Below are positions 18,691 through 64,000 of a stretch of 64,000 nt of DNA, piece by piece. Made by a program: the position numbers and the translations under genes. The notes under the pieces were generated by a model. The model searched no databases and had not been told where the DNA came from. It saw only the letters and a program-made list of their open reading frames with translations. Position 1 is the first letter of the stretch. Each line of letters starts with the position of its first letter. Source of the DNA: Basidiobolus meristosporus CBS 931.73 (Eukaryota > Basidiobolomycota > Basidiobolomycetes > Basidiobolales > Basidiobolaceae); the NCBI GenBank assembly GCA_002104905.1, contig MCFE01000383.1, positions 19,891 to 83,890 of the forward strand, read 5' to 3'.

Positions 18691-19379
18691 TATATGTGAT
18701 TGATCGAAGCATTCCATCATGATTTAGTTCCACCTGCCAAAACCACACCAAATTGAATAAACCCCCACGGCAATTCAGTAGGAAGCAAGAGAATCATGCT
18801 ACCCAAAAGCTACTTCCAATTATATGCAAGATTCAGTTTCCACTTGCTTCAAGCCAATCCCAGGCCCCAGTTCTACTTGTTTTATGGTCTAGGTTGGACC
18901 AAGCATTGAAGTTAAAGCTCAAGACTATTCCCATATGACTGGAAACTTCGTTTCTGGCAATATTGTAGACATGTAAATGCAAGAATCGGAGTATGTGAGC
19001 AGGCTATAGCATCCACTCTCAACGTACTTCTAAAAATGAATGTTGAGTGGTTGTATTACGTGCTAATGTGATCTCCTAGAGTTCAATATGATCGTTTGTG
19101 AGTCGATCATCACAGAATAGTTTTACCTACATCGTGTTGCACCGCAAAGTCCTTTTTATGTACGAAGAAGAATGGCATGAATTTTTCATATTCAATAACA
19201 ATCGGGATCTCGGGTTGTTAATCCAGCACTACTGTCTGTCAACGATATAATATACACCTATAATTTGAAAGTGTCAATGATATCTACCTAGATACCAGTC
19301 TCAGTGTTGCTTAAATGGGGCTCTTACGGTGTCTACAAGAAATTCCCACCAGAGTATAGCTATATTATTCGGCATCTAT
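18691..19379. other. Intergenic, no gene recognised
   Basis: Follows subtilase copy 1. AT-rich, with short open frames only and no recognisable domain or repeat. Confidence 0.5.
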
Positions 19380-19590
19380 AAATTTATGCTATTGCCAAGC
19401 AGGATTACTTCTGTTAGGCAAAGGCGCCCCCATGGGAAAATCCCTCCCTGTGAGTCGCACCGTCTTAGATAAGGAATTCTTGGGAGAGTTGACGTACCGC
19501 AGATACTGCTCAGTGAGAGAAGCGGCTATTCTGTTTGAGTCGAAGCTGGGATGCCTGCACCTTTCACATACACCCAATCAAGATTGTTAA
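19380..19590 (+). pseudogene. Eroded subtilase C-terminus
   Basis: Translation of about 19430-19580 keeps the spacing of the subtilase C-terminal tail: a GELTYRRY-type segment where the intact gene has RELRDGRY, then AAILFESK where it has TAIPFLRQES. The DNA CACCCAATCAAGATTGTTAAC aligns with CCCCCAATCGAGATCATCAA at the intact gene's end. I infer a remnant of another family member. Similarity is low and could be tested by pairwise alignment. Confidence 0.45.
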
Positions 19591-21276
19591 CTTCCAATTT
19601 AAAACATTGGTTGTGGGTCAATTTTGTCGTTTTATTATACATATGTGCATAGCCTCCGTAGCCACATTAGATGGACCCCAGTGCTCGCATAACCAGTGTA
19701 AATCCTTGCTCTACTGAGCACTTTCTGTGATCTTTTTATGATGACGTGCCAATGGCATTTTAGAAATATTTGGTATTACCCTAAGGCTCCCATCATTGAC
19801 TTCAACTCTTGGTAGACCGTTATGAAGTAGTTCCAGTAGTACCTAGCGTTTTGTTTGCCTTAGCATATCAATGTCTGAGAACCTCAGTTGCCATTATGTC
19901 ATTTTTGGAAAATCAAGCTATTGATATCAAAGTCGACCTTTAGAAGCCAGCACTTGGAGAAAAAAGAAAGCCAAAATAGTTACCTGATGACTTGGAGTGC
20001 TTCTTGATAGATAACAGGTAGTAACCACTGGTTCTTTACTGGATGGTAGAGCTACTAAAATCAGGCCTATCAAGAAATGATACTCACTTGATTATAAGTT
20101 ACTCTGTGTCTAGGTAGAAGACTACTCCCATTATGCATGCTGACTGCCAACCATACAAACTCTTTAGCTTAGTGAATATATAACCTATTAGATCTGCTAG
20201 GTGCGTTATGGCAAAAATCACTGATGAAGAAACTCATTGGAGCCTTGCAAATACATCATTTTAAATGAACAAACATTGCTTAGTCACTGAAATAGCAGTT
20301 ATATGTGTTGTAAACTGTATGTTGATACACCTAAACCTGTACCTTGATTATAAAGTGTATATATTAGCTATACATGCCAGGTTCTGTTAGTTTTGTTTGT
20401 GGAGGTGTGCTTTCTGTATTCAAAAGTACACTCGTTACTATAATTTGCCATATGATCCACTTTGCACTGCTATGAGACCATGTACCTGGAATGGCATTTC
20501 TGTGGCAAATCGATTAGAGTTTGCATTTTGGTTAGTTAATAAGTTTCAGATTGGATTGGTATATCAATAGTATGTGGCATGTTGGATGCGACAGTACAGC
20601 AGTTATAGTTGTATGTATTTTAAAACCATGTGGTCCTTTGGGTGTAGGAAGATTAATCCATAGAGACATTTCCAGAAAGTATTCCAATCCCTGCAGAGAA
20701 TTTGATCAGGAAATAATAAGGCTCATACATTACCATCAAAGTGTCGAAATCGATATAGATATTCCGATGCAAATATGAAGTTTAAAACAGGTAAGACAAG
20801 AAATGTTTTCAAGGTTGAGAGTTTAATGAGTTCCCTGCCGCAATATTACGAGAGAGAGTGTATAGAGCATGTAGGGCAACTGGAGTGAATATCCAGAAGG
20901 ATGAACCTTTCACTGATGCGATGCGAGGCGAATGGGGAACAGGGTTGGCGTGGTGGCACTCAAGCTGGCGACACGACAAAAATCGAAGTATCTCGCGTAC
21001 GCACAATTTCGACGAAAATATTCATGTCACCGATAATATTGGTTGTGATCATGAGGCTTACCTTTTGGGGGAACACGCAGGTTTGGCCGACTGGTCAGTA
21101 ATGCGGCGTGTCGCACGCTTGATAGACCATTGTGCTATGGTGAATGCGGTTTCAGATTGAAGGATGCCTTACATTGAACTTGAGTTCAGCCTAGCTGGTA
21201 AGTAGCAGCAGGTTGGGTGAATCCATTTCCAACGAGAAATTCATGATTGGAACGAGTATGTTCATCGACTGGGGCC
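19591..21276. other. Intergenic; right end is a duplicated subtilase promoter
   Basis: No convincing gene. The last ~300 bases (from about 21045) share blocks with the region before copy 1 (ATGAGGCTT..., GACCATTGT.CTATGGTGAATGCGG, GGATGCCTTACATTGAA). The upstream regulatory region was therefore duplicated together with the gene. Confidence 0.55.
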
Positions 21277-21332
21277 CATAAAACCCATCACCTGTGTACT
21301 GGAGAGCTCCACGCCTTTGATCCCTCACTTAC

Positions 21333-23856
21333 ATGCGAGTCATCTCCTTGCTAGTTCTTCTGCTTTCCCAGCCCGGAAACAATGAGGCGTCATACACAAA
21401 GCGGGGCGTCCTGAGACGAGGACTGCTCGATATCGAGCGTAATTCAAACGAGGAGCTGGCCCCATACATCGTTGAGTTTGAGGGATTCAGTGAGGACCCG
21501 AACGACCACCATCTTACCCACTTGGACTTCTTGAGCAACCTGGATGCCGTAGGCATTCGTTACAGCGAACGCGTTAGATTCACCACTGTCCTCAACGCCA
21601 TGTCACTCAACATCCACTCGAAGCACCTGGACCTACTCGATGCCCATCCTCAGGTGAAAAGAATCTGGCCTGTGACGCAACACAGGCTTCATGCTCCAGT
21701 GCCACCATCCCCTTCGAGAGGACTTCCATCCGACTTGATCTCGAACATATACCTCTCTACGGCAGTGGACAGAGTGCATCAGCAACTGAACAACACGGGG
21801 GCAGGTATCAAGGTGGGGATTGTTGACTCTGGTGTTGATTACAATCACCCATCGCTGGGCGGATGCTTCGGGCCAGGATGCAAGGTCGGCTACGGCTTCG
21901 ATTTTGTAGGAGATAGGGTATTGAATGGCAAGCCAGATGAGCGTCCTATGGATTGCAATGGTCATGGCACCCATGTAGCGGGTATAGTGGCCGCAAGGGA
22001 TGCCAACTTCGTGGGAGTTGCTCCAGATGTGATCCTTGGAGCCTATCGTGCAATGGACTGCAATGGGAACGGAGAGACGGATATCATTATTCAGGCCATC
22101 GAAAAGGCTATCTGTGACGGAATGGACATTATCAACCTATCGTTAGGCAGTGAAACTCCATTCCCTGACACTTTAGAGACTGCTATTGTTGAACGGGCCT
22201 CCAGTCGAGGAAGTCTGGTCATCGCAGCCGCGGGTAATTCTGGTGCTCAAGGACAATGGACCGTCGGTGAACCATCAACCGCGCGAACAGCCATTAGTGT
22301 TGCCTCATTTGAAAGTCCTTCATATCCTGGACAGAAAGCAGTGCTGGACCAGTATCCCGAGCACCCAATCATATTCGGCTACGGAGACGGGAGGCCGATC
22401 TCTATTTCACATGCGAAAGTTACGGTCGTCACGTACGATGATTGCAAGTCCATTCCCGCAAAACTGGGTGGGTCCGTTGCCGTATTGAACTCGAACGTAT
22501 CGTCAGATGATTGTGACATGACCACTCAATATACAAAGGTTAAGGAAGCCGGAGCAGTTGCCATCATTGATGGATCTACATCTGATGAACCCAACATCCC
22601 AGAAATACCCTTCGGTGTGAATCTACCCATTCTGGGCGCAGCAAAGAGGGACTTTGATTTTCTCATTAGATCTCTCAGGAACACAACCATCACCCTGACC
22701 ACTTTGGGGAAGGTCCAACTCCATCCAAATCCATATGCAGATAAGCCATCCTCCTTCAGCTCATGGGGACCTGATTTCGAGCTGAACCTGAAACCTGAGG
22801 TTGGTGCCCCAGGTGGGAAGATCTACTCAACCTACCCACTAGCCTTGGGAGGCTATGCCACATTGAGTGGAACCTCTATGGCTTCACCTTTCCTGGCGGG
22901 TGCTGGTGCACTTCTACTCCACGCACGCAGAGCAGCCGGTCTTCCTACTGATGTCGACACAATGCGCAGTATACTGATCTCATCAGGAGCCCCAGCATTG
23001 GCCAATGTGACTACGGATCGATACGTTCCAGTGGGGAAACAGGGAACAGGTCTGATCAATGTCTGGAATGCCATCCATAAGACCACCTTGGTGAGCCCAC
23101 TGAAAATATCCTTGAACGACACGGTTCGTGCCAACCTAAGCCATGTCCTTACCATCACCAATACCAACACGATACCCATCACCTACAACATCACTCATCG
23201 ACCAGCGCTGTCAGTCAACGGCTATGACCAGAATGGTTACGTGGCGGATTCGGCCTAACCTTGTGTTCTCCGAAGCCTCAGCTGAGGTACAGTTTGATAC
23301 TGCCCAGGTTACCATTGAACCTGGGAAATCGGCTCAATTCTCAGCCCAATTTGCACCACCAATCATGAATAGCCAGCCATGGATATACAGTGGCTACATA
23401 TTTGTGACTGGCTCAGATGGGAGTTCTCCAGCGGCAGTGCCTTACTTGGGTCTTGCAGGAGATATGAGTGAGCTTAGAGCGATCGACACCACCGGCCCCC
23501 ATGCCCCCACTCTAGTGCATTCCAAATCCAAAAAGCCGGAAGAGGTTTACAACTTCAGCAGAAATGAAACTGCCATTGTTATTATCCCGTTGCTTCATCC
23601 CACCAAGCTTATCGTAATCTACGTCACTGACAAGTCGCAAGAGCCCATTGGCTATCTAACAGCCAGTGAGAATATGGGCCTGCCAGCCGATAGAATGCTC
23701 ACTCTGAAATTCAACGGAACCGTTCTGGGTAACGACGGGTCTGAGCAGGTGTTGAGCAACGGTCAATATCAGGTGGCGGTTAGATCAGCAGTTCCATTTT
23801 CCAGTCAAGAATCCGATGTCTGGATTTCATCCCCGATCCAGATCATCACTACCTGA
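21333..23856 (+). pseudogene. Secreted subtilase, copy 2, one frameshift
   Basis: The frame is open from ATG 21333 to 23258 (641 residues). It covers signal peptide, I9 propeptide, the whole S8 domain with Asp (DSGVDYNHP), His (GHGTHVAG), oxyanion Asn (AAAGNSG) and Ser (SGTSMASP), and the PA insert. One extra C at about 23255 (GATTCGGCCTAACC against GATTCGGCTAACC in copy 3) then shifts the frame into a stop. The rest of the C-terminal Fn3-like domain continues in another frame to a TGA at 23854-23856. Because the protease domain is complete, a C-terminally truncated enzyme is conceivable. The TATA equivalent is CATAAAA at 21278. An assembly error is possible. Confidence 0.85.
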
Positions 23857-24814
23857 TCGATGTAATTGATTGTAGCCTCCCATCATAGTTTGGTTGTATC
23901 TGCTAAACCACACCAAGTTGAATTGTCTTGCAATGCAGTAATGGATGTGTAACCCATCGCACCTAGAAGCATCATTCATCCTTATTAATCTCCAACAAAT
24001 TGCTTGTGTAAAATCGAAATATATGCATAATCAGAAGCAATACTAATTATTGGTAACAAATCAGATATGTCGAATGCATGGCCAATCCTCGAAAAAGCAA
24101 ACGGAGGGCTGAATCTTTGTTGGGAAGAACATATGGTTGATATTTCATCAGATATGGCACTGATTCATCATAATACACCCAGTTATAGGCTTGATACTTG
24201 GGCTACTTCTGTGTTGTTTACTGCATCGCTTGAAAGCTATATCCAAATATGGGGATATACAGACTTGGTAGACCCTACTTTAAGATAGTTGATTATTCTC
24301 TAGCCATACCATCTTGTATGATTGTGAACAGAATCACCACTAGCAGCGGTGTGCGTTAACATAGAGATATGATTTCCTACCAGTGACAGAAATATCCATG
24401 ATGGACATTGTGGTAGAACTTCTTTTATTGGAGTGCGCTACGAGGCAAGCGCGACGTGACAAACATAGAAATGGATTCAATGCACCAGCCTATTCAGTAA
24501 TTATCGTATCATTGCGACTCTGGCGTGACGGCATCTGATGTAGCCAACCATCCACAAAGCCATCTGCTTGAATGAATTTCCAGAAACCATCTGGAGCGTC
24601 GCTGCAATCAACATAAAGAGGTGAGACAGCCATTTTCATAAACCGGATCAGTTAAGGAGCTTTGTGCTACGCCAAATGAGGTCTCAGCATGAACCTCAAA
24701 TATAGCCCAGTTGGCAGGCAACAAAAGATTGGGCAAATCAGAAGGCTGGGCGAATCAATAATCGATACATAGTTGGCGAATGCGATGACCTCGCCCACCG
24801 GATTCGATGAAGTC
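23857..24814. other. Intergenic, promoter region of subtilase copy 3
   Basis: No gene supported; the open frame at 24067-24288 has no recognisable features. The right end shows the same upstream blocks as copies 1 and 2 (GAACCTCAAATATAGCCCAGTTGGCAGG) and ends with AATAAAAG about 48 nt before the ATG. Confidence 0.5.
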
Positions 24815-24862
24815 AATAAAAGCATCCGCCATATCACTGCAGTGCTCCACTTTTTCATCTTG

Positions 24863-27382
24863 ATGCGAGTCAGCTGTTTGGTTGCTCTACTGATTTCCCG
24901 GATCGGAAGCAACGACGCATCCCATGCGAAGCGAGAAATCTTTAAGCGTGGTTTGGTCGATATCGAGCGTAGCGCGAACGAAGTATTGGCCCCTTATATC
25001 ATCGAATTCGAGGGATTCAGCGAGGACGCAAACGCCAATCATCAAACTCATCTAGGCTTTCTAAGCGACCTGAATGCCGCAGGTATCCGCTACACTGAAC
25101 GGGCTAGATTCGCCACGGTCCTCAATGCTCTGTCAATTAGCGTCCATTCGAAGCATTTGGACCGACTGCACAATCATCCCCAAGTAAAACGGATCTGGCC
25201 TGTGGTAAACCACCGACATTTTGCTCCTATTCCCGCATCTTCTTCTCATGGGCTACCATCGGATTTGATCACAAACACATATCTCTCTACGGCAGTGGAC
25301 AGAGTGCATCGGCAACTAAACAACACCGGGGCAGGAATCAAGGTGGGGATCATTGACACTGGCATAGACTACAACCACCCATCCCTGGGTGGCTGCTTTG
25401 GGTCAGGATGTCGAGTCCGCTATGGCTGGGATTTCGTGGGAGATAAGAAATCGAATGCTAATGGCCCAATGGATTGTCATGGGCATGGCACCCATGTAGC
25501 AGGCATAGTGGCCGCAAAGGATGCCAACTTTGTTGGAGTGGCTCCTGATGTGATCCTTGGAGCCTATCGAGTTCTTGGCTGTGATAGTAGAGGAGAGACT
25601 GACGTCATTATCCAGGCCATCGAAATGGCAGTCCGTGACCAAATGGACATTATCAACCTGTCGTTAGGTGAAAACAATCCATTCCCGGACACGCTAATGG
25701 CTACCATTGTTGACCGAGCGACTAGTCGTGGTGTTCTGGCCATTGCAGCCGCAGGCAACTCGGGGATCAGTGGACAGTGGACCGTTGGAGAACCGTCCAC
25801 CGCACTCACCTCAGTAGCAGTGGCCTCATTCGAAAGCCCTTCATTTCCTGGGCAAAAGGTGGTGCTGGATCAATACCCCGAGAATCCGATGGTTTTTGGA
25901 TATGGAAAGGCTGAACCCTTCTCTTTTGAGCACACAAAGGTTTTGGCCGTGATGTACGATGGCTGTAAACCTATTCCCGTGAGACTTGACGGAGCAATCG
26001 TCCTCTTTCACTCCAAGAGACTTACCGTAGCATGCAATACGGCCACTCAATATTCCAACGTCGAGAAAGCAGGAGCAGTTGGAATCATTGAAGGCTCCAT
26101 TTTCGATGAGCCGCACGTTGCACTCACACCATTGGGTGTGAATATACCTGTTATGGGCGCTACAAAGGGGGATTTTGATTCTCTCCTGGCTAAGCTTATC
26201 AACGACACGCCCATCACCCTGACCACTTTGGGGAAGGTTCAGCTATATGCCAGCCCGTATGCTGATAGGCCATCCTCGTTCAGCTCATGGGGACCTGATT
26301 TCGAGTTGAATCTGAAACCTGAGGTTGGCGCTCCAGGTGGGAATATCTACTCAACCTACCCACTAGCCTTGGGAGGCTATGCCATATTGAGTGGAACCTC
26401 CATGGCTTCACCTTTCCTGGCGGGTGCTGGTGCACTTCTACTCCACGCACGCAGAGCAGCCGGTCTTCCTACTGATGTCGACACAATGCGCAGTATACTG
26501 ATCTCATCAGGAGCCCCAGCATTGGCCAATGTGACTACGGATCGATACGTTCCAGTCGGGAAACAGGGAACAGGTCTGATCAATGTCTGGCATGCCATCC
26601 ATAAGACCACCTTGGTGAGCCCACTGAAAATATCCTTGAATGACACGGTTCGTGCCGACCTAAGCCATGTCCTTACCATCACCAATACCAACACGATACC
26701 CATCACCTACAACATCACTCATCGACCAGCGCTGTCAGTCAACGGCTATGACCAGAATGGTTACGTGGCGGATTCGGCTAACCTTGTGTTCTCCGAAGCC
26801 TCAGCTGAGGTACAGTTTGATACTGCCCAGGTTACCATTGAACCTGGGAAATCGGCTCAATTTTCAGCCCAATTTGTACCACCAACCATGAATAGCCAGC
26901 CATGGATATACAGTGGCTACATATTTGTGTCTGGCTCAGATGGGAGTTCTCCAGTGGTAGTACCTTACATAGGCACCGCAGGAGATATGAGTAAGCTCAG
27001 AGCAATAGATGTCACCGGGCCACGCTCCCCCGCTCTGGTGCATTCCATTTCGCAAAGGCCGGGATTCTTCTATAACTTCAGCAGGAATGAAACCGCCATT
27101 ATTACAGTCCCATTGCTTCATCCCACCAAGAATCTTGGAATCCATGTGATTGATGAGCAGAAGAACCACATCGGCTACCTCATGGCGAGGAAAGACGTGG
27201 GACGTTCGCTGGGAACGCCGCTCACTCTGAATTTCAGAGGAAGCGTCGTAATCGACAACAAAGGCTCCAGACGGGAGCTGAGGGATGGCCGATATCATGT
27301 AGTAGTTGAAACGGCGATTCCATTCTTGAGACAAGAGTCGGATATCTGGATCTCACCCCCAATCGAGATCATCAATACCTAA
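24863..27382 (+). CDS. Secreted subtilisin-like serine protease (S8, Vpr-type), intact
   Basis: Encodes 839 residues without introns. The start MRVSCLVALL matches the starts of copies 1 and 2; an upstream TTG extension is unlikely. Residues 1-19 look like a signal peptide. An I9-type propeptide (about 43-118) precedes the S8 domain with Asp165 (VGIIDTGIDYNHP), His208 (CHGHGTHVAG), Asn299 (AAAGNSG) and Ser513 (LSGTSMASP). A PA-like insert lies between about 355 and 460, and a C-terminal Fn3-like region spans about 600-740. This order is typical of large secreted endoproteases of the Vpr/C5a-peptidase type, which degrade extracellular protein. Several NxS/T sites fit secretion. DNA from about 26275 to 26950 is almost identical to copies 1 and 2 whereas the rest has diverged, suggesting gene conversion. 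It is the only intact member here. Confidence 0.93.
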   Translation: MRVSCLVALLISRIGSNDASHAKREIFKRGLVDIERSANEVLAPYIIEFEGFSEDANANHQTHLGFLSDLNAAGIRYTERARFATVLNALSISVHSKHLDRLHNHPQVKRIWPVVNHRHFAPIPASSSHGLPSDLITNTYLSTAVDRVHRQLNNTGAGIKVGIIDTGIDYNHPSLGGCFGSGCRVRYGWDFVGDKKSNANGPMDCHGHGTHVAGIVAAKDANFVGVAPDVILGAYRVLGCDSRGETDVIIQAIEMAVRDQMDIINLSLGENNPFPDTLMATIVDRATSRGVLAIAAAGNSGISGQWTVGEPSTALTSVAVASFESPSFPGQKVVLDQYPENPMVFGYGKAEPFSFEHTKVLAVMYDGCKPIPVRLDGAIVLFHSKRLTVACNTATQYSNVEKAGAVGIIEGSIFDEPHVALTPLGVNIPVMGATKGDFDSLLAKLINDTPITLTTLGKVQLYASPYADRPSSFSSWGPDFELNLKPEVGAPGGNIYSTYPLALGGYAILSGTSMASPFLAGAGALLLHARRAAGLPTDVDTMRSILISSGAPALANVTTDRYVPVGKQGTGLINVWHAIHKTTLVSPLKISLNDTVRADLSHVLTITNTNTIPITYNITHRPALSVNGYDQNGYVADSANLVFSEASAEVQFDTAQVTIEPGKSAQFSAQFVPPTMNSQPWIYSGYIFVSGSDGSSPVVVPYIGTAGDMSKLRAIDVTGPRSPALVHSISQRPGFFYNFSRNETAIITVPLLHPTKNLGIHVIDEQKNHIGYLMARKDVGRSLGTPLTLNFRGSVVIDNKGSRRELRDGRYHVVVETAIPFLRQESDIWISPPIEIINT

Positions 27383-55483: not shown

Positions 55484-55833
55484 TGTTGTAGGAGTGTTGG
55501 AGATACTGGAAGTGATTGGGAGAACAAGTAGATTATGTTGTTTTCACTCATAGATTTAATAAAGGTAAAAGTAGTTTTTCTATTACTACATGGCCTTGGA
55601 AGAACAAACTTGTAGAATAGGCTTAGCAAGGTCCCAAAGAGTATGTGTGCAAAGTTTGGGGCTGTTTAAACAACTTCAAGAAATCTCATGTTCTGGATAC
55701 CTGATGTGTTAGTGAAAATGCTGTGAGTAAATCTTAACAAGGAACTTAGGCAGCATCCTCTAAGATTTGTAGGTAATGATATAAGTGACTAAGCCTGGTA
55801 GATTGTTAGGTGCAAGTACAAGCTTTTACAACA
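55484..55833 (-). repeat. Copia 3' LTR (minus)
   Basis: A 350-bp LTR whose minus-strand reading starts TGTTGTAAAAGC and ends CTCCTACAACA. It is preceded on that strand by the purine tract AGTGGGAG and by Copia RNase H, so it is the 3' LTR of the relic at 55834-56149. The inserted element interrupted an older LTR. Confidence 0.8.
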
Positions 55834-56149
55834 CTCCCACTTAGCAAAATATTCATATGCAATAGCCTTAACTGAGGTATAAGATATTCAAGTTTATCTC
55901 TAGTTAATAGTTTAGTAAGTATGTCTGCAGTCATTTCATCTATAGGACAGTAAACTAATATAACTAAGCTATACTCCACAGCTTGCCATATGATATGATG
56001 TCTAATTTCTGTATGCTTAGTTCTAGCATGAAAAGTTGGATTTCTACATAGTTGTGTACATCCTTGATTATCTCAAAATAATGTAGTGGGCTTATTATAT
56101 AAGCCACATTCATGGAAAGATTTCTTAACCACAGGGCTTCTTTTGTAAG
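55834..56149 (-). pseudogene. Copia RNase H relic, abruptly truncated
   Basis: The minus strand encodes ALTKEALWLRNLS, then (after a frame change) DNQGC and NPTFHARTKHTEIRHH, then VYCPIDEMTADILTKLLTRDKLEYL, the end of a Copia polyprotein. The 5' portion (integrase, RT) should lie to the right but is completely absent: at about 56150 the sequence changes to the 3' end of a retroelement of the terminal array. Confidence 0.85.
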
Positions 56150-56640
56150 GGCAGGAAAGTCACCAAGGGAGGTAAAATCTTTGTTGGTATTCAGTTATGT
56201 CAAATAACAAATAAACACACCAGCTGGGAATATAATTTTCCCACAGCAAACACTAAGCTGAAAAAAAATAAATCTAAGCTCAAGTTAAGGCAGTATTGCA
56301 GAGTACAATGGAGCTCAGGTTAACAGGAGAGTAAAGTAGATAAACCTAAATATATAATACTCCTTCAGGATGTAGGTCACAGCAGGTGAAGGGGTATTTC
56401 TGATAAGTGAAGTAAGTCTTGAAGGTAAAGATACATCCAACAAGCAGGGCTTGTAAACTGGAGAATCAGGAAACTCTTTAAAGGCATGTTCAATAATCTC
56501 CCAGTAAACTGGTCAAAAACATTTTGATGGAGCTGCTTGGCGATAATCTTGTCAAGTAATATCTCCATCATGTGATTGTTGATAAATCTCATGTTAACAA
56601 TCATGGAAAGGTTGCAATCCTGTTGCTTGAGATACTTGGA
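56150..56640 (-). mobile_element. ORF1-only retroelement copy 1 (innermost unit of the terminal array)
   Basis: The left end GCAGGAAAGTCACCAAGGGAGG..AAAATCTTTG is the shared 3' end of the terminal retroelements. A 3' UTR is followed by an ORF1-like minus-strand frame (56377-56604 and neighbouring frames), homologous to the frame at 62499-63150: VNMRFINNHMMEILLDKIIAKQ against VNMRFINHHTLEVVLDKSIAKQ. Frameshifted and 5'-truncated. It is followed on the right by AAGGGTTAGGGG. Confidence 0.75.
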
Positions 56641-56654
56641 GTAAGGGTTAGGGG
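56641..56654 (+). repeat. Interstitial telomere-type repeat
   Basis: GTAAGGGTTAGGGG sits exactly between two 5'-truncated retroelements, like the other TTAGGG junctions further right. Confidence 0.7.
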
Positions 56655-59308
56655 TTTATATTCTTATACAGAAATGAATAAAGCTTTGTGGTACCAAATT
56701 CAGCTTGCTTTAAGTCAAATTGCACAAATAGTGCAAATTGTACAAAGAACTATGTCTATAGTAAAGTGAAAATAAAAATACTGCTAAAAATGTGTAGAGT
56801 TGATTAGGAACTTGTCAACAAATTATGATAGAAAATAAAACAGAGCTAGTAGTTGTAAGAAAGAAAGGCACCAAGAGAAGGTGTCAAGGTATACTGCTGC
56901 TTCCTGGGAGCCAGTGACCTTGCAAGAAGGCAGAAGCTCTGGTCTGATTGTAGATATGATAGCACAAAGCCTCTGGATGAGCTCCATTCATTTGAGGAAT
57001 TAGAGAAAACATTGCATATCCTTGAACTCAAAGCAGCTCTCAACATGAGAGTAGTGAAAGTGCTTCCTACTGTTGGGGAATTTGGAGCCCAAGCAAAGTG
57101 CTTTTATTTGCCACCTTATGGCCTGGAAGACAAAGAAGGACCTCCTGATGTAAAGGGATATGTGTCCTTCACTAAGTTAGTGTCTACTCTCATAGGGGAT
57201 AAGTCCAACTCTGTCATTTAGGTAGTGACTCTTGAGATATACTCCAGATGCCTTTTGTGCATTGCTACAGAGAGAAGTATTTGCTCTCTAGGTGGCTTGG
57301 TGCTATTGGAGACCAAATAAGATCTAAACCCATCAGAAAGTGCATCCTCTTTGTCCCCTAGACTTTGAGGTAGTTTTGACCAAATTATTAGCAATCTTAA
57401 TGATTCATATCTACAAAGGACTATTGGGCAATGCTTTTACATTGTGCTGCCCAACCCCAATACCTAATGTCTCAGATCTGAATAGTGCAGCAACTATACC
57501 AATCTGACTACACATATGCCTTGGATATTACCTAAAATGGCAGTCAGAAGCATCAACCTCCCAGCTAATATCTTCTTGTTACAGAGCTTGTAAACAGGTA
57601 GTAAGGTCAGGATCAGTAGCCAAGCATATCATAGCAGCAGTATACTCCCAACATAGACACATAAGGGCCCTGAATAGCTGTAACTTAATCACAGAATATC
57701 TTCTAGCCCCTTTGAGCTGTAGAAATTTCAAAGTGGCAGAAGCCCTTTGAATACATTTTTCAGTGTAAGCTGCTCAAGAAATCTCACTTTGATAAGTTGA
57801 GGGTCCAGTGTAGTTGTAGAAGAAAGGTTGAGGCAAAGGTAAGTTATAGAAGGAAATATTTCACACCAGCCTTGATCCAATGTATGCTAATTTAGCAGTA
57901 CTTACTTCCATACCATTGGCAGTATAAGATAGTCTGCTTTACTCAGAAAACAATAAGCTTCAGCAATTGAATATCATCAGCAAATAGCAGTGCAGTAGGC
58001 ACAGAAGCTCATAAGTCATTTATACAGAGAATATCTGCCAGATCATCAATGTAGACATTGAGCAGAACTGGTGAAAGAAACAATCCCTAGCCCCCTCAGC
58101 CTGCAGAATGAAGACAAGATTAAACCATAGACACTGATAGTGGAATAACAAGCTAAGAAAGATGAGTGTGCAATCTCAAGAAACTGATTGGATGCATGCT
58201 TGTTCTTACGCTTCTTTGGGATTTTGAGGATCACCACCATATCAGTACCTGTTTCAGGTCAACAAAGAGTCTGCGTTTTCCTGCTTCATGACCTGATATG
58301 TAAAATACCACATTATATACTACTCAATGTGCTACAGTAGAGTAGCCTCCCTGAAGCCAGCTAGTGCAGGATGAAACTGGGCTAAGGGAGAATTACTAAT
58401 GCAGTGTAATAAGGGAGGCTTCAACTATTCTTTGCACATTGGTGACAAGGCAATAGGCCTGTGGTTATCAATGAATGAAGAATTGGACTTCTTTGGCAAA
58501 GGATGAATGTGACAATAATACCAGTTTCAAGGAGTAAATGCAAGCCTGAGGTGATTACAAAAGAAAGTTTTTAAATCATCTATGATAGCTTCATTTCTAG
58601 CAAAAGCCTTGAGAATATATACATGGAGAGGGCCCAGATCAGATGATTTGGGGGAGGGATACTTGCTGATTATCAGAAGAGGAGACCTGATAGCAAACCA
58701 CTCACTATTAGGGAGGGTATTATGCATAAAGGACCCAAATGCTAAAACCCAGCCAACTCAATGGTAGTGAGGAGGTGGGTATGAATATACTTCTTGAAAG
58801 TGCTTAGGTGCATCATCCACAGCAAGGATACTAAGATGTTTAGAGCTGATTACTACTTTGACCTGGGCTACCCTCTGAGCTTGCTTGAATATCACAGCAG
58901 CCTACTAGACAGCTGAGGCAGAGTGTAGTCTTCAAAGGGGGTCATGTCTTCTAGGACCAGGTTTGGTGGGATGAGCTTAGAGAGTTTCCAAGTAAACTTT
59001 GCATTTGATCAATACCCCAGAGTGAAAAGTAGTATAGGCAGGGCCAATGGCAGCACAGATAGCTCCTATAGGAGAGTTGGATGTAGGAACTTCCTTATGT
59101 CTCTAGGAAGTTTGCTGCTGTGTTACCCCAAAGAGCACTGGCTGCCGATGACCTACAGAACATTTGGCTTCTTAAGTGACTGAAGTTGCAGCTTGAGTGA
59201 GGCAGAAACAGAAATATTCTGCATGCTAGAAAAAGAATAGGCCATTGACACCATACCAGCAATGAATATAGAGTCTGACTAACTACACATTATATAAAAC
59301 TCAAGGTG
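56655..59308 (-). mobile_element. Second LINE family, degenerate, RT recognisable
   Basis: The minus strand carries a decayed non-LTR reverse transcriptase. Region 58300-58730 gives LPKKSNSSFIDNHRPIAL and FHPALAGFREATLL (RT blocks 0-2), then around 57970-58090 the frames AQCLHXXLADIL-like and ALLFADDIQLL, the FADD active site. Numerous stops interrupt it. Its 3' end abuts TTAGGGG at 56648-56654, but its last bases (AATATAAACCCCTAA on the minus strand) do not carry the hairpin shared by the other units, so it is a separate family. It is cut at its 5' end at 59308 by the next unit. Confidence 0.75.
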
Positions 59309-59835
59309 TTAGGGGGAGGAAAGTCACCAAGTGGTGAAATCTTTATTTACTTATGACAAGTATCTAAAGAAGCCAAGTTAATCTGAAGTAATTCCTAGAA
59401 AGCTAGGTCTGAGAGATATCTTCCTGGTAAGCCAGGTCTGAGAGTTGAGAAGCTGAGTGGTACTATATTTCCTAGTTAGCTAGGTCTGAGAGAGGTTTCC
59501 TGGAAAGCCAGGCCTGAGAAGTGAGAATCTGAGTATATCTGAGGTGAGTTGTACTGATTTGCGGTAGCTTGTTTGTGGCCAGAATGGCCAGTAGACTGGG
59601 GGAACTGAGGGGTATTTCTGGGCGATCACTGGCCAAATTTACTAGGCAAATTTGACCAATTAGCATTTCAAGGATTTCAGCCAATCAGAGCCTTTACTTG
59701 GCCCGATGGTTGATCAAGCCATCTCCCAATGAGCACACATCAATTTATTGATCAAATTTTGTTGGATCCAGGATTTGAACCCACAACCATGGGTATGGAA
59801 GGGTTAGGGATAACCACAAGGCTAAGTGTTCTTGG
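59309..59835 (-). mobile_element. Telomeric SINE, copy 1
   Basis: A 527-bp unit. Read on the minus strand it starts with a tRNA-like head holding a Pol III box A (TAGCCTTGTGG, 59824-59814) and box B (GGTTCAAATCC, 59781-59771). A body follows with four 5-bp-stem tetraloop hairpins (59499-59512, 59471-59484, 59423-59436, 59393-59406). It ends with AAATAAAGATTTCACCACTTGGTGACTTTCC and CCCCCTAA. The last ~40 bases match the 3' ends of the ORF1-only and RT elements, as expected of a SINE using a LINE's reverse transcriptase. No coding capacity. Confidence 0.8.
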
Positions 59836-60363
59836 TTAGGGGGGAGGAAATTCACCAAGTGGTGAAATCTTTATTTACTTATGACAAGTATCTAAAGAAG
59901 CCAAGTTAATCTGAAGTAATTCCTAGAAAGCTAGGTCTGAGAGATATCTTCCTGGTAAGCCAGGTCTGAGAGTTGAGAAGCTGAGTGGTACTATATTTCC
60001 TAGTTAGCTAGGTCTGAGAGAGGTTTCCTGGAAAGCCAGGCCTGAGAAGTGAGAATCTGAATATATCTGAGCTAAGTTATACTGGTTTGCGGTAGCTGAA
60101 TTGTGGCTGGAATGGCCAGTAGACTGGGGGAACTGAGATGAATTTCTGGGCAATCACTGGCCAAATTTACTAGGCAAATCTGGCCAATTAGCATTTCAAG
60201 GATTTCAGCCAATCAGAGCCTTTACTTTGCCCGATGGTTGATCAAGCCATCTCCCAATGAGCACACATCAATTTATTAATCAAATTTTGTTGGATCCAGG
60301 ATTTGAACCCACAACCATAAGTATGGAAGGGTTAGGGATAACCACAAGGCTAAGTGTTCTTGG
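59836..60363 (-). mobile_element. Telomeric SINE, copy 2
   Basis: A 528-bp copy of the preceding unit with scattered substitutions (for example TGGCTGGAATGGCC for TGGCCAGAATGGCC), joined to it head to tail through TTAGGGGGG (59836-59844). Full length, including boxes A and B. Confidence 0.8.
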
Positions 60364-62369
60364 TTAGGGGGGAGACAGTCACCGACAGGTGAAATCTTTA
60401 TTTCAGTTGAAACAAAGAAGCCAGCGCTACTGTTGTAGCTTTGATACAAGAGTGTGTAGCTGAGGGGAATTTGTAGGTAAGTTAATAAGAAGTGATGATA
60501 GTTCTTCAGTGCTCAAGACACTGTTCAGTGGGAAGGGGGGTAGCAAGAGAGGTAAGAATGACTTGTGAACAACATTAATGAGGGGAATATGATATGGATT
60601 GATATTCATCATAAAGGGAGTGTGCTGCTGCAGATATTGCTGCCAAAGGTCTGTCAAGTACTTCAGGTAGGCCAGCTTGGGTTCTTCTGACTGCAGAATA
60701 TAGTGAGCAAACTTCTTGACTTCAGGATCTCCAAGTATAGTTCTCCAGCAGGAGCCAGGTGTTGTGTGGTGTGTTCTCTTCCAGGCCTTAATCAGTGGGT
60801 TGTTGCAGTTGTGAAGTCTGAGGTATAATCTGGTTCTAAGGTAGAGAAGTCTGATCTTATAGGGCATAAACCCAAAAGCACCAAGAATAGCATGTCTGTA
60901 GGGGCATTCAGGCAAATGAGGCACCAAGGAGGTAATGCACCATACTGCAAACTTGTCAAGCTTAGTGCAGTCTCTAGAAGTAAGAGAGAGAAGTGGTAAG
61001 CCAAATTCCAGGACAGGGAAGACAAACTGCTTGAGTAGAAGGAGGCAGCTGGGAGCTGAAGTTGTAGGAGGAGTAACAGCCAGTAGCTTGTGGAGTGCCT
61101 GTCTTGCCAGGATAATTCTCTTCTTCAGGTGTGCTCCAGAGTCTAGTCCAGTAGGAAGGAAAGGAAAGCCAAGATATGTAGCAGAAACCTGCGCAGGTAG
61201 AGTGGAGTTCTCCAAGTTGATGGGAGAGCCCAAAGGTACTGTCTTTGCAATGGAAAGCTGGAGATTATTCTTCTGCAGATACTGGTGGATGGTCTGGGAG
61301 TCTTGTTGCACATTGGAGGAGGATATTCTGATGTCATCAGCAAAGAGAGTAACCAGGCAGTCAGCTGAGAGTCTTGGGAAATCATTCAAGAAGATGGCAA
61401 ACAGTATAGGACCAAGCACAGAGCCTTGAACCACTCCATTAGGAACTGAGAACACAGCTGATTGGTCACTTGGGTGCAGAATTCTTGCTTGTGGATCCAG
61501 AAACAGAGACCTGACAAGGAGGGTGAGAGAGGTACTGGAGAAGCATTGCAACTTGGACCAAAGCAGATTTCTGTCAACTGAATCAAAGGCCTTAGTGATA
61601 TCAAACAGAACAGAGGGATACTTGCACTGGAGAGAGTGATCTTGGCTAAGTATGACTGCATATTCCAAGGAGAGGCCAGGAACAAAGCCAAACTGTGCAG
61701 GATGAAACTTGAGAGAGTCAGAGTAGAGCTCCTGAGCAAGCAGAAGCTCAAACACCTTTCTGCAGGTGGGCAGCAGAGATATTGGCCTGTAGGAGCTAGG
61801 ATCCAGGTGCTTTCCTTTACCCTTGTACAGTGGCAGAACATTTGCAAAGGACCATTCCTCAGGAGTAGAAAGCTGGGCTGAGCATTACTGAAACAGTGGA
61901 AGCAGAAGTGCAGACATGGCCTTGGTACTAGTCTTCAGAAGCTCATAGGAGATTGTGTCCACACCTGGAGCAGTAAAGTTGGGAAGCCTCTTGAGCACAT
62001 TATGGATTCTCCTTTGATCAAGTGCAAGTGGGATGGGCAGAGTCTGGAAGTCAGGATGAAAGCCAGGAGTTGAGTACTGCTTTGTAGAGAAGAAGATGTT
62101 AGCCAGCTGTTCTGTTGAAGGTAACTTCCTGGAAGAGGGCCTCATTGCCCTGTAGAGTCTTGATACTGTTCTTGTTATAGAGTTGGAAGATTGCAGAGGC
62201 AAAGAACTCATAATATGAACCCAGAGCTGAGTATGCAGAGTGTGGTGAATTGCCTTGGAGTGGTGTATTGCTGTCAGGAGGAGTTTCTCTGTTTTTGGGT
62301 TAGGGAAACTCAGGTAGCTTTGTTGCAGGGCTGAAACAATGGATTCCCATTTTCATGAGGTAACAGGGG
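60364..62369 (-). mobile_element. RT-bearing LINE, 5'-truncated
   Basis: A 2.0-kb unit beginning at the left with TTAGGGGGG and the shared 3' hairpin (minus strand TTCACCTGTCGGTGAC), then a 3' UTR of only ~60 bases and the reverse transcriptase. It is cut at the 5' end before any endonuclease or ORF1, directly at the TTAGGGG of the next unit. Confidence 0.85.
60427..62340 (-). pseudogene. LINE reverse transcriptase, one in-frame stop
   Basis: The minus-strand frame runs from the truncation point (about 62340) to 60427. The linker contains TAPGVDTISYELLK, then after a TAA at about 61885-61887 (LLPLFQ-stop-CSAQL) SYRPISLLPTCRKVFE, FDITKAFDSVDRNLLW, GVVQGSVLGPILFAIFLND and the catalytic LFADDIRISS. 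The thumb and C-terminal part run to KLQQ-stop. These are the standard non-LTR RT blocks with an FADD active site. Apart from the single stop the frame is clean, so the source element was active recently. Endonuclease type and ORF1 cannot be seen because of truncation. Confidence 0.88.
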
Positions 62370-63152
62370 TTAGGGGAGGGAAAGTCACCAAAGTAGGTGA
62401 AATCTTTATTTGATTTCAGACAAGTCTAACTACAAATAAAGAAGACAGCTGGGAATAGAAGATTCCCAAAGTAAACACTAAGATGAATATGAATAAATCT
62501 AAGCTAAAGTTAAGGCAGTATCCCAGAGTACACTGGAGTTCAGGTTCATGGGGGAGTGAAGTAGATAAGCTTGAGAGATATAATAATCTTTTAAGAAGTG
62601 GGTAACAGCAGGTGAAGGGGAGTTTTTGATAAGTGAAGTGAATCTTGAGATCAGAGATTCCTCTAATGAGAAGGTCTTGTAAACTGGAGAATCAGGAAAC
62701 TCTTTAAAGGCATGGTCAGTAGGTTCCCAGTAAAACTGGTCAGAGACATTTTGAGAGAATTGTTTAGCAATACTTTTGTCAAGTACTACCTCCAGAGTGT
62801 GATGGTTGATAAATCTCATGTTGACAATCTTGGATAAGTTGTAACCTTGTTGCTTGAGATACATCCTATGCTCAGATATAGGAATAAACTCCACATTGGC
62901 AAAGTAGCAGACAGCCCAGTCAGTAGCAGGAGGCAAATCAGAAGTGGCAGGAAACTTTCTTTTGGTCTTGGGAGGAGCAGCAGGATATCTTGAGGAAGCA
63001 GGAACAGACTTTTTGACAACTTCAGAGTAGGAAGAGTGAGCAGGAGCAGATGATTCTTGGGGAGTCTTGTTGGCAGGAAGAGTTGGCTCAGGGACAATAG
63101 ATTCTTGCAGATCAGAGAAGGCAGAAAAGAGCTTTTGAACTTGTTTCTTGAG
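62370..63152 (-). mobile_element. ORF1-only retroelement copy 2
   Basis: A 783-bp unit starting with TTAGGGG and the shared 3' hairpin (minus strand TTTCACCTACTTTGGTGAC). A ~130-bp 3' UTR lies directly after an ORF1 stop at 62499. There is no RT between ORF1 and the 3' end, the same arrangement as in the copy at 56150-56640. 5'-truncated at the next TTAGGGGGG (63153). Confidence 0.8.
62499..63150 (-). CDS. ORF1 (gag-like) protein, 5'-truncated
   Basis: The minus-strand frame is open over ~217 codons from the truncation point, so no start codon is visible. The N-terminal third is Ser/Pro/Lys-rich and low-complexity (EPTLPANKTPQESSAPAHSS; PPKTKRKFPATSD), followed by a compact domain: DWAVCYFANVEFIPISEH, MRFINHHTLEVVLDKSIA, SDQFYWEPTDHAFKEFPD, SLISRFTSLIKNSPSP. 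It resembles the nucleic-acid-binding ORF1 proteins of LINEs in general character, but I see no zinc knuckle, so the assignment rests on position, composition and the shared 3' end. An RNA-packaging, telomere-targeting role is inferred. Confidence 0.6.
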
Positions 63153-63680
63153 TTAGGGGGGAGGAAAGTCACCAAGTGGTGAAATCTTTATTTACTTATG
63201 ACAAGTATCTAAAGAAGCCAAGTTAATCTGAAGTTATTCCTAGAAAGCTAGGTCTGAGAGATATCTTCCTGGTAAGCCAGGTCTGAGAGTTGAGAAGCTG
63301 AGTGGTACTATATTTCCTAGTTAGCTAGGTCTGAGAGAGGTTTCCTGGAAAGCCAGGCCTGAGAAGTGAGAATCTGAATATATATGAGCTAAGTTATACT
63401 GGTTTGCGGTAGCTGAATTGTGGCCGGAATGGCCAGTAGACTGGGGGAACTGAGATGAATTTCTGGGCGATCACTGGCCAAATTTACTAGGCAAATCTGG
63501 CCAAGTAGCATTTCAAGGATTTCAGCCAATCAGAGCCTTTACTTTGCCCGATGGTTGATCAAGCCATCTCCCAATGAGCACACATCAATTTATTAATCAA
63601 ATTTTGCTGGATCCAGGATTTGAACCCACAACCATGGGTATGGAAGGGTTAGGGATAACCACAAGGCTAAGTGTTCTTGG
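63153..63680 (-). mobile_element. Telomeric SINE, copy 3
   Basis: Full-length third copy (528 bp) with the same hairpin series and box A/box B head, joined to the preceding ORF1 element by TTAGGGGGG and followed by four telomere repeats. Confidence 0.8.
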
Positions 63681-63705
63681 TTAGGGTTAGGGGTTAGGGT
63701 TAGGG
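63681..63705 (+). repeat. Short interstitial telomere array
   Basis: TTAGGG, TTAGGGG, TTAGGG, TTAGGG in a row between two SINE copies: a former chromosome terminus. Confidence 0.85.
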
Positions 63706-63799
63706 GGATGAAAGTCACCAAGTGGTGAAATCTTTATTTACTTATGACAAGTATCTAAAGAAGCCAAGTTAATCTGAAGTTATTCCTAGAAAGCTAGGG
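63700..63799 (-). mobile_element. Telomeric SINE, copy 4, truncated and capped by the telomere
   Basis: Only the last ~90 bases of the SINE (3' hairpin to the first internal hairpin) are present. At AAAGCTAGG the sequence passes straight into TTAGGG repeats, where full copies read CTAGGTCTGAG. Confidence 0.85.
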
Positions 63800-64000
63800 T
63801 TAGGGTTAGGGTTAGGGTTAGGGTTAGGGTTAGGGTTAGGGTTAGGGTTAGGGTTAGGGTTAGGGTTAGGGTTAGGGTTAGGGTTAGGGTTAGGGTTAGG
63901 GTTAGGGTTAGGGTTAGGGTTAGGGTTAGGGTTAGGGTTAGGGTTAGGGTTAGGGTTAGGGTTAGGGTTAGGGTTAGGGTTAGGGTTAGGGTTAGGGTTA
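63800..64000 (+). repeat. Telomere (TTAGGG)n
   Basis: About 33 perfect TTAGGG units to the end of the window. The G-rich strand runs 5' to 3' toward the right edge, as it does at a chromosome end. Confidence 0.98.

What the first reader, a model, noticed from the sequence alone, without database searches (positions are those of the whole stretch)
56150..64000. Head-to-tail LINE/SINE stack joined through TTAGGG at a TTAGGG-capped chromosome end
Eight 5'-truncated or full retroelement units lie in one orientation, 3' ends toward the centromere. Nearly every junction is TTAGGG(G). This is the geometry expected if element RNAs ending in CCCUAA prime on the telomeric 3' G-overhang and are copied onto the chromosome end. 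It matches Drosophila HeT-A/TART logic and recalls telomere-associated elements such as Magnaporthe MoTeRs, but here RT-type, gag-type and tRNA-SINE units are mixed while (TTAGGG)33 still caps the end. Orientation and junctions are read directly; the end-extension mechanism is inference.
Basis: partly seen in the sequence, partly recalled or inferred. Interest (0 to 1): 0.95.

Follow-up and report, generated by a model that had tools for sequence, protein, structure and literature searches.

The report
Telomere-only LINE, gag-unit and SINE stacks
The chromosome ends of this TTAGGG-capped genome carry stacks of three kinds of mobile element (a self-copying LINE, a gag-only unit and a short SINE) that share one RNA tail, sit almost only at chromosome ends, and look as if they were copied one after another onto nearly bare ends that were then re-capped with TTAGGG.

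Summary
Eight same-orientation units (56155-63798) lead to (TTAGGG)33; seven of eight 3' ends follow exact TTAGGG. The shared 3' end has 1,536 exact copies; 1,221 have TTAGGG within 12 nt before it and none CCCTAA. Of 88 scored reverse-transcriptase copies, 86 lie within 20 kb of a contig end, facing outward. Gag-only and SINE copies behave alike.

The units: a two-ORF LINE (weak endonuclease-like domain plus RT); a gag-only unit homologous to the LINE's ORF1, as in HeT-A/TART; and a SINE. All share a 3' tail. A telomerase (TERT) domain was found.

One amendment: tracts between units are 1-2 repeats (two or more in 279 of 1,536; four or more in 23), not the roughly 33 of a telomere, so priming on a normal telomere is unlikely. 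I favour addition to nearly bare ends, then telomerase re-capping. Full-length SINE copies end in ...GGTT, in register with TTAGGG.

New variant of a known kind (MoTeR, FoTeR, Drosophila HTT, Athena); a telomere-restricted SINE with a gag-only partner beside telomerase was not found in my literature searches. The mechanism is inferred.

The parts
56155..56636 (-). old, 5'-truncated gag-type unit, 3' end at left; junction degenerate (TAAGGG)
   Evidence: 80.4% identical to the gag unit over 484 bp; sequence read
56654..59308 (-). unassigned unit between two TTAGGG junctions; no shared hairpin at its 3' end; strand by analogy
   Evidence: no tblastn match to the LINE ORF2 at 1e-3
59315..59834 (-). 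full-length SINE
   Evidence: 96.0% identical to 59842-60362 over 521 bp
59842..60362 (-). full-length SINE; B-box-like GGTTCAAATCC and A-box-like TAGCCTTGTGG on the minus strand
   Evidence: boxes read by eye against recalled consensus
60370..62366 (-). 5'-truncated LINE (ORF2 residues 276-922, RVT_1); this copy carries an in-frame stop
   Evidence: RVT_1 1.3e-25; 99.2% to the C3 copy over 1,997 bp
62375..63153 (-). gag-only unit, 5'-truncated; ORF 62499-63152 lies directly upstream of its own 3' tail with no RT between
   Evidence: homologous to LINE ORF1 (34% over 133 aa, E 3e-15)
63159..63679 (-). full-length SINE
   Evidence: 98.3% to 59842-60362
63706..63798 (-). 94-bp SINE stub abutting the telomere with 4-nt overlap (TAGG)
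63795..64000 (+). terminal telomere, 33 exact TTAGGG units, contig end
60362..60410 (-). example of the shared 3' tail: AAUAAAGAUU-UCACC(loop)GGUGA-CU..-C-run-CCUAA
   Evidence: alignment of seven tails in the window, 23 invariant positions; three tails folded, z -2.25, -2.07, -1.31; the five-pair hairpin is in the centroid of all three but in the minimum-energy fold of only two
63680..63705 (+). longest inter-unit telomeric tract in the window, GTTAGGGTTAGGGGTTAGGGTTAGGG

Best explanation
This is a telomere-dedicated retroelement consortium: an autonomous LINE (ORF1, then ORF2 with an endonuclease-like domain and RT), a gag-only unit and a SINE, all bearing the same 3' tail so that one RT can copy all three. 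Most likely mechanism: when a chromosome end has lost all but a few bases of TTAGGG, its 3' strand anneals over a few bases to the CCCUAA / C-run 3' end of an element RNA. The LINE RT copies the RNA onto the end from its 3' end, often stopping early (5' truncation). The new end is then lengthened again, either by another element RNA or by telomerase, which restores the roughly 200-bp cap. Shown: concentration at contig ends, outward orientation, shared tail, TTAGGG at junctions, short tracts, excess microhomology, gag homology, presence of a TERT domain. Inferred: terminal priming, use of the LINE RT by the other two units, and telomerase re-capping.
For: Location and direction: 3' end 1410 forward / 126 reverse, reversed-pattern control 0, following the telomere strand bias 7428/81. 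Within 20 kb of the outward contig end: RT 86/88 (63/65 on contigs of 60 kb or more, 11.8 expected), gag 149/150 (96/97, 15.4 expected), SINE heads 99/100 listed of 243 (66/67, 9.0 expected). TTAGGG before the 3' end in 1221/1536, CCCTAA in 0. Short tracts: at least 2 repeats 279; with shortened patterns at least 3 repeats 63 and at least 4 repeats 23, against terminal arrays of about 160-245 bp in the seven telomeric ends read. In 48 junctions read, tract 4-15 nt, starting in every phase, 42 of 48 at least 6 nt. Overlap between truncated unit and tract: mean 1.78 nt in 23 junctions against 0.74 expected, P 4e-5. Full-length SINE ends: of 100 listed of 144, 97 read CTTGGTT; 73 have one in-register repeat, 5 two or more, 19 another phase or filler, 3 no TAGGG (backward control 1). 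TERT RNA-binding domain, E 1.6e-8, over cut-off, 0 of 14 control genomes.
Against: An endonuclease-like domain is still recognisable (PF14529 E 2.9e-4, 21.1 bits, under its 27.4 cut-off), so cutting inside telomeric repeats cannot be excluded (though TART keeps one too; PMC5537684, passages). Microhomology at 5' ends is also usual for ordinary LINE insertion (recalled). In MoTeR arrays tracts of 3 or more TTAGGG break (PMC7367193, passages), so short tracts could be survivors and not the state at insertion. 315 of 1,536 3' ends lack an exact TTAGGG within 12 nt; of the six junctions read with a tract under 6 nt, five look like one-base variants and one (C22:14790) does not. One internal reverse-oriented stack (C558, about 95-98.7 kb of 218 kb) and one inverted copy (C726:57767) exist. 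The SINE's tRNA head is not called by ARAGORN or Rfam.
Confidence: 0.6

Rival explanations
1. Endonuclease-driven insertion into intact telomeric repeats (TRAS/SART or MoTeR logic), with the internalised tracts later shortened by slippage or by breakage and healing.
For: EN-like domain; MoTeRs have the same head-to-tail geometry with tracts from half a repeat to more than 20, and tracts of 3 or more are fragile (PMC7367193 passages); 23 tracts of at least 4 repeats exist here.
Against: Tract lengths fall about three- to four-fold per repeat (1221, 279, 63, 23; the last two with shortened patterns), with no sign of a telomere-length class; the N-terminal part of the EN domain is not covered by the Pfam match (residues 88-202) and a PDB search of it found nothing.
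Confidence: 0.25
2. The stacks grow mainly by recombination (break-induced replication, unequal exchange between ends), with transposition rare.
For: RT copies 99-100% identical across ends (88 scored); gag truncation point shared by the C22 and C25 ends; consecutive near-identical short LINE stubs at C2:260.0-260.2 kb.
Against: The 18 resolved of 21 truncated-unit junctions are truncated at different places, a few only bases apart; recombination does not create new unit-TTAGGG joints; 19 of 100 SINE joints differ in phase or filler.
Confidence: 0.1
3. Neutral accumulation: the elements insert widely but survive only in gene-free ends.
For: Ends are CpG-depleted, 0.05 observed/expected against 0.65-0.79 in the 16-56 kb bins.
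Against: The young 99-100% RT copies are already end-restricted (86/88), as are 98/100 listed 3' ends; TTAGGG at joints and fixed orientation are not explained.
Confidence: 0.02
4. Assembly artefact that joins repeats to telomeres.
For: Fragmented assembly (1311 contigs); telomeres almost only at right ends, probably clipped at left (inference).
Against: Distinct units with class-specific joints, 1,221 exact joints, backward-pattern control 0.
Confidence: 0.02

Closest known systems
Drosophila HeT-A / TART / TAHRE
   Same: Tandem units at the end, a gag-only member beside an RT-bearing member, addition to the 3' OH of the end (PMC4700185 and PMC5537684, passages); 3' ends toward the centromere and 5' truncation (recalled)
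   Different: Here a TERT domain and a TTAGGG cap are present, telomeric repeats lie in the joints, and a SINE takes part
MoTeR1/MoTeR2 of Magnaporthe (PMC7367193, passages)
   Same: 5' end nearest the chromosome end, head-to-tail, TTAGGG tracts between, non-autonomous partner sharing termini
   Different: MoTeR1 has a putative REL endonuclease and TTTGGG runs at its 5' end; MoTeR2 holds an unrelated sequence in place of the RT, not a gag homologue; no SINE in the passages seen; tracts reach more than 20 repeats
FoTeRs of Fusarium oxysporum (PMC12857005, abstract and sections 18-19)
   Same: Fungal non-LTR elements at ends with telomeric motifs at both junctions
   Different: Clade with MoTeR1, Cnl1 and CRE, REL domain; typically 3-7 repeats at the 3' junction; no SINE or gag-only unit in the parts read
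Endonuclease-deficient Penelope-like elements (Athena; via PMC5537684 passages, original not held)
   Same: Short telomeric stretch at the 3' end, read there as addition to uncapped ends; 5' truncation
   Different: A LINE-type RVT_1 RT with an EN-like domain here
TRAS/SART of Bombyx (PMC4700185, PMC5537684, passages)
   Same: Telomere-restricted LINEs with telomerase present, 3' UTR recognition proposed
   Different: They insert inside repeat arrays by their endonuclease, and only full-length copies are reported there; here mostly truncated units on short tracts

Membership tests
Telomere-specific non-LTR retrotransposons (general kind) | Copies confined to chromosome ends | tested here: met
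   86/88 scored RT, 149/150 listed gag, 99/100 listed SINE heads within 20 kb of the outward contig end; true telomere array at 7 of the 8 right ends read; exceptions C558, C726
Telomere-specific non-LTR retrotransposons (general kind) | Reverse transcriptase of LINE type | tested here: met
   RVT_1 1.3e-25; best solved relative LINE-1 ORF2p, E 4e-7
Drosophila HTT-type | gag-only member related to the RT-bearing member | tested here: met
   E 3e-15 for one comparison, 34% over 133 aa; 150 listed copies, many with 271-aa open frames
Drosophila HTT-type | Telomerase absent, elements form the terminus | tested here: not met
   TERT domain present; TTAGGG cap
MoTeR/FoTeR (CRE clade, REL endonuclease) | REL endonuclease | tested here: inconclusive
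   Pfam on all 922 aa of ORF2 of one copy shows only RVT_1 and weak APE-type EN; no dedicated REL search was made
MoTeR/FoTeR (CRE clade, REL endonuclease) | RT phylogenetic placement in the CRE clade | not tested
   Protein database switched off; no reference sequences at hand
TRAS/SART | APE-type endonuclease cutting telomeric repeats | tested here: inconclusive
   PF14529 below cut-off; no PDB match; activity not testable
TRAS/SART | Insertion within long telomeric arrays | tested here: not met
   At least 4 repeats before only 23 3' ends, against 1,536 in all; later shortening not excluded
tRNA-derived SINE sharing a LINE 3' tail | 3' tail shared with an autonomous LINE | tested here: met
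   23 invariant positions over seven tails in the window
tRNA-derived SINE sharing a LINE 3' tail | tRNA-derived 5' head | tested here: inconclusive
   A/B-box-like motifs 44 nt apart by eye; ARAGORN and Rfam negative

The most novel reading that the evidence does not exclude
The SINE carries its own telomere mimic. Its RNA starts AACC, so a finished copy ends ...GGTT, the register of TTAGGG, and the RT (or telomerase) steps straight from that end onto the CCCUAA tail of the next element RNA. Stacks would then be built by template-to-template relay on bare chromosome ends, a retroelement-based emergency elongation working beside telomerase. The SINE also holds an internal CCCTAACCC.
Probability: 0.25. 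Interest if true: 0.88.

Novelty: new variant of a known kind. Interest (0 to 1): 0.77.

Why it matters
It gives a natural case in which telomerase and a HeT-A/TART-like set (RT element, gag-only partner, and also a SINE) share the same ends, with about 1,500 readable joints. That makes testable how retroelement telomeres could take over from telomerase, whether elements choose short or uncapped ends, and whether a SINE can be a telomere-elongation template.

Tried and rejected
Rejected: chance TTAGGG (CCCTAA control 0); general dispersed LINE; Rfam hits in the stack (FMR1-AS1_1, ceN28) are far below gathering scores and taken as chance. Led nowhere: protein homology search (off); PDB search of the EN part; NCBIfam hits of the RT to group II and Drt3a models, far under cut-off; assigning the 56654-59308 unit; naming the species (size and contig number recall a Basidiobolus assembly; recall only, untested). 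Dropped rows: of the 48 junctions, 18 had no known unit before them, 9 were SINE 5' ends and 3 of the remaining 21 were unresolved, leaving 18; two one-base gaps were scored 0. Five long-tract joints were added: chromosome-end joints of C2, C22, C25, C628 and one internal tract at C23:18904; C25 was scored by eye (without it P 2e-5, n 22). The end joints of C1 and C23 were unassigned and that of C21 is a SINE head. A first version of this test (17 joints) was replaced. Distances use 72 exact contig lengths and interpolation by scaffold rank for the rest; on short contigs the 20-kb criterion is trivial, hence the separate counts for contigs of 60 kb or more. The RT search scored 88 of 1,540 candidates and gag 150 of 551, best first, so young copies are favoured. 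Literature searches.
Full report
Observation. The last 8 kb of the window hold eight units in one orientation, 3' ends to the left, ending in 33 exact TTAGGG at the end of contig C628. TTAGGG precedes seven of eight 3' ends exactly and the oldest in decayed form (TAAGGG). In 56-64 kb there are 48 TTAGGG and no CCCTAA.

What the units are. The 60370 unit is a LINE piece with RVT_1, 99.2% identical over 1,997 bp to a copy on contig C3. That copy shows part of ORF1 and a 922-aa ORF2 with a weak endonuclease-like match (PF14529, 21.1 bits, under the cut-off) and RVT_1. By eye, its EN part keeps LNCN, GDLN and SDH but has IDVQ where a catalytic Glu is expected; these motifs are recalled, so the state of the endonuclease is open. 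The 62375 unit has a gag-like ORF directly before its own 3' tail and no RT between. It is homologous to the LINE's ORF1 (34% over 133 aa, E 3e-15) and has 150 listed relatives in the genome, many with 271-aa open frames. This is the HeT-A/TART arrangement. The 59315, 59842 and 63159 units are a 521-bp SINE, 96-98% identical to each other. Its head has A- and B-box-like motifs 44 nt apart, read by eye; ARAGORN and Rfam do not call a tRNA. All three kinds share a tail: AAUAAAGAUU, a UCACC/GGUGA hairpin with a variable loop, a C-run, then CCUAA (the oldest unit at 56155 has decayed from it). The G-run at the joint is class-specific in the 48 junctions read (mode 6 for LINE, 6 then 5 for SINE, 4-5 for gag), so part of it belongs to each element.

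Genome-wide test. The genome has 89.0 Mb in 1,311 contigs. The (TTAGGG)4 pattern lies 7,428 forward, 81 reverse, probably because assembly clipped left ends (inference). The 3' end pattern occurs 1,410 forward and 126 reverse, control 0; with TTAGGG 0-12 nt before it, 1,131 and 90; with CCCTAA there, 0. Contig numbers fit an alphabetical scaffold order, and 72 exact lengths fall monotonically with that rank (interpolated total 89.3 Mb), so other lengths were interpolated. RT copies: 86 of 88 scored lie within 20 kb of the contig end they face away from; on contigs of 60 kb or more, 63 of 65 against 11.8 expected. Gag: 149 of 150, 96 of 97 against 15.4. SINE heads: 243 exact (233 forward, 10 reverse), 99 of the first 100 within 20 kb, 66 of 67 against 9.0. 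3' ends: 98 of the first 100, 35 of 37 against 3.6. Of the 20 reverse RT and gag copies 17 lie within 11 kb of a left contig end. A terminal TTAGGG array was seen in 7 of 8 right ends read; C3 ends inside an element.

Exceptions. C558 holds an internal, reverse-oriented stack near 95-98.7 kb of 218 kb; in the 2 kb read there is no telomeric array on its outward side, only two lone CCCTAA near 94.55 kb. C726 has one inverted copy. A former chromosome end carried inward by rearrangement would explain C558; this is inference. Three further copies miss the 20-kb line by under 2.2 kb (C424, C1 twice).

Joints. Of 1,536 3' ends, 1,221 have at least one TTAGGG, 279 at least two, and with shortened patterns (so slight over-counts) 63 at least three and 23 at least four. 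In 48 joints read, the tract is 4-15 nt and starts in every phase. Terminal arrays are about 160-245 bp. So units were not left standing on telomere-length arrays. Truncated units overlap the tract by 1.78 nt on average over 23 joints against 0.74 by chance, P 4e-5. Full-length SINE ends are the clearest case: among 100 listed of 144 joints 97 read CTTGGTT; 73 continue with one in-register repeat, 5 with two or more, 19 with another phase or filler, 3 without TAGGG, one of them an unrelated sequence. Where a fixed end is followed by telomeric DNA in another phase or after filler, the telomeric letters were joined to the SINE's end and not copied with it. The in-register majority is what GGTT annealing to CCCUAACC would give, but a SINE RNA that begins CCCUAACC would give it too.

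Mechanism. The G-rich strand supplies the primer wherever the joint is readable, since the element 3' end follows TTAGGG and never CCCTAA. Short tracts, variable phase and overlap favour joining to nearly bare ends. The same inference was drawn for Athena elements (PMC5537684, passages). A TERT domain is present (PF12009, E 1.6e-8, over cut-off, in two pieces, the second with one TAG), so re-capping by telomerase is the natural source of the terminal array. Three sources of the short tract remain open: a telomerase seed, the CCCUAA tail of the next RNA, or an RT jump between RNAs. The MoTeR finding that tracts of three or more TTAGGG are fragile (PMC7367193, passages) is the strongest point for the rival of insertion into intact telomeres followed by shortening.

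Novelty. Telomere-specific LINEs are known in several lineages (PMC10088271, PMC5537684, PMC4700185, PMC7367193: passages; PMC12857005: abstract and sections 18-19). A 2023 paper that lists such elements does not mention SINE in its main text (PMC10088271, 0 occurrences). Phrase searches for telomeric or subtelomeric SINEs showed none among the 25 listed of 138 papers, and no title listed (1 paper; 15 listed of 33) concerns them; most subscription papers are not in the library. The one paper found for Basidiobolus with telomere and retrotransposon is about adenine methylation in Mucorales (listing), but the species is not established. I therefore file it as a new variant: a three-part consortium with a gag-only member and a SINE beside telomerase.

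Noticed in passing
window 63646-63654 and equivalents at about 59801-59809 and 60329-60337: Each full-length SINE carries an internal CCCTAACCC on its own strand (position 33 of a 528-nt stretch), a 1.5-repeat motif like a telomerase template, inside its tRNA-like head.
   Followed up: partly
window 56000-64000: CpG observed/expected is 0.05 in the stack and 0.12-0.20 in 1-16 kb, against 0.65-0.79 in the 16-56 kb bins, suggesting heavy cytosine methylation of repeats.
   Followed up: no
window 55806-56072 (-): Frame resembling a Ty1/copia RNase H C-terminus (HARTKH...ILTKLL, recalled motif; no Pfam hit) at the centromere side of the stack; 55484-56090 has an inverted 73.6% copy at 12991-12389.
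   Followed up: partly
window 16981-27382: Three neighbouring subtilase-family frames (Peptidase_S8, two with fn3_5).
   Followed up: no
G000:C558:94500-98700: Internal, reverse-oriented stack of the same elements, a possible buried chromosome end.
   Followed up: partly
whole assembly: Telomere arrays almost only at right contig ends (7428 against 81), and contigs appear sorted by length in alphabetical scaffold order; left ends are probably clipped by the assembler.
   Followed up: partly
G000:C880:173109-173423: Telomerase RNA-binding domain in two pieces.
   Followed up: no
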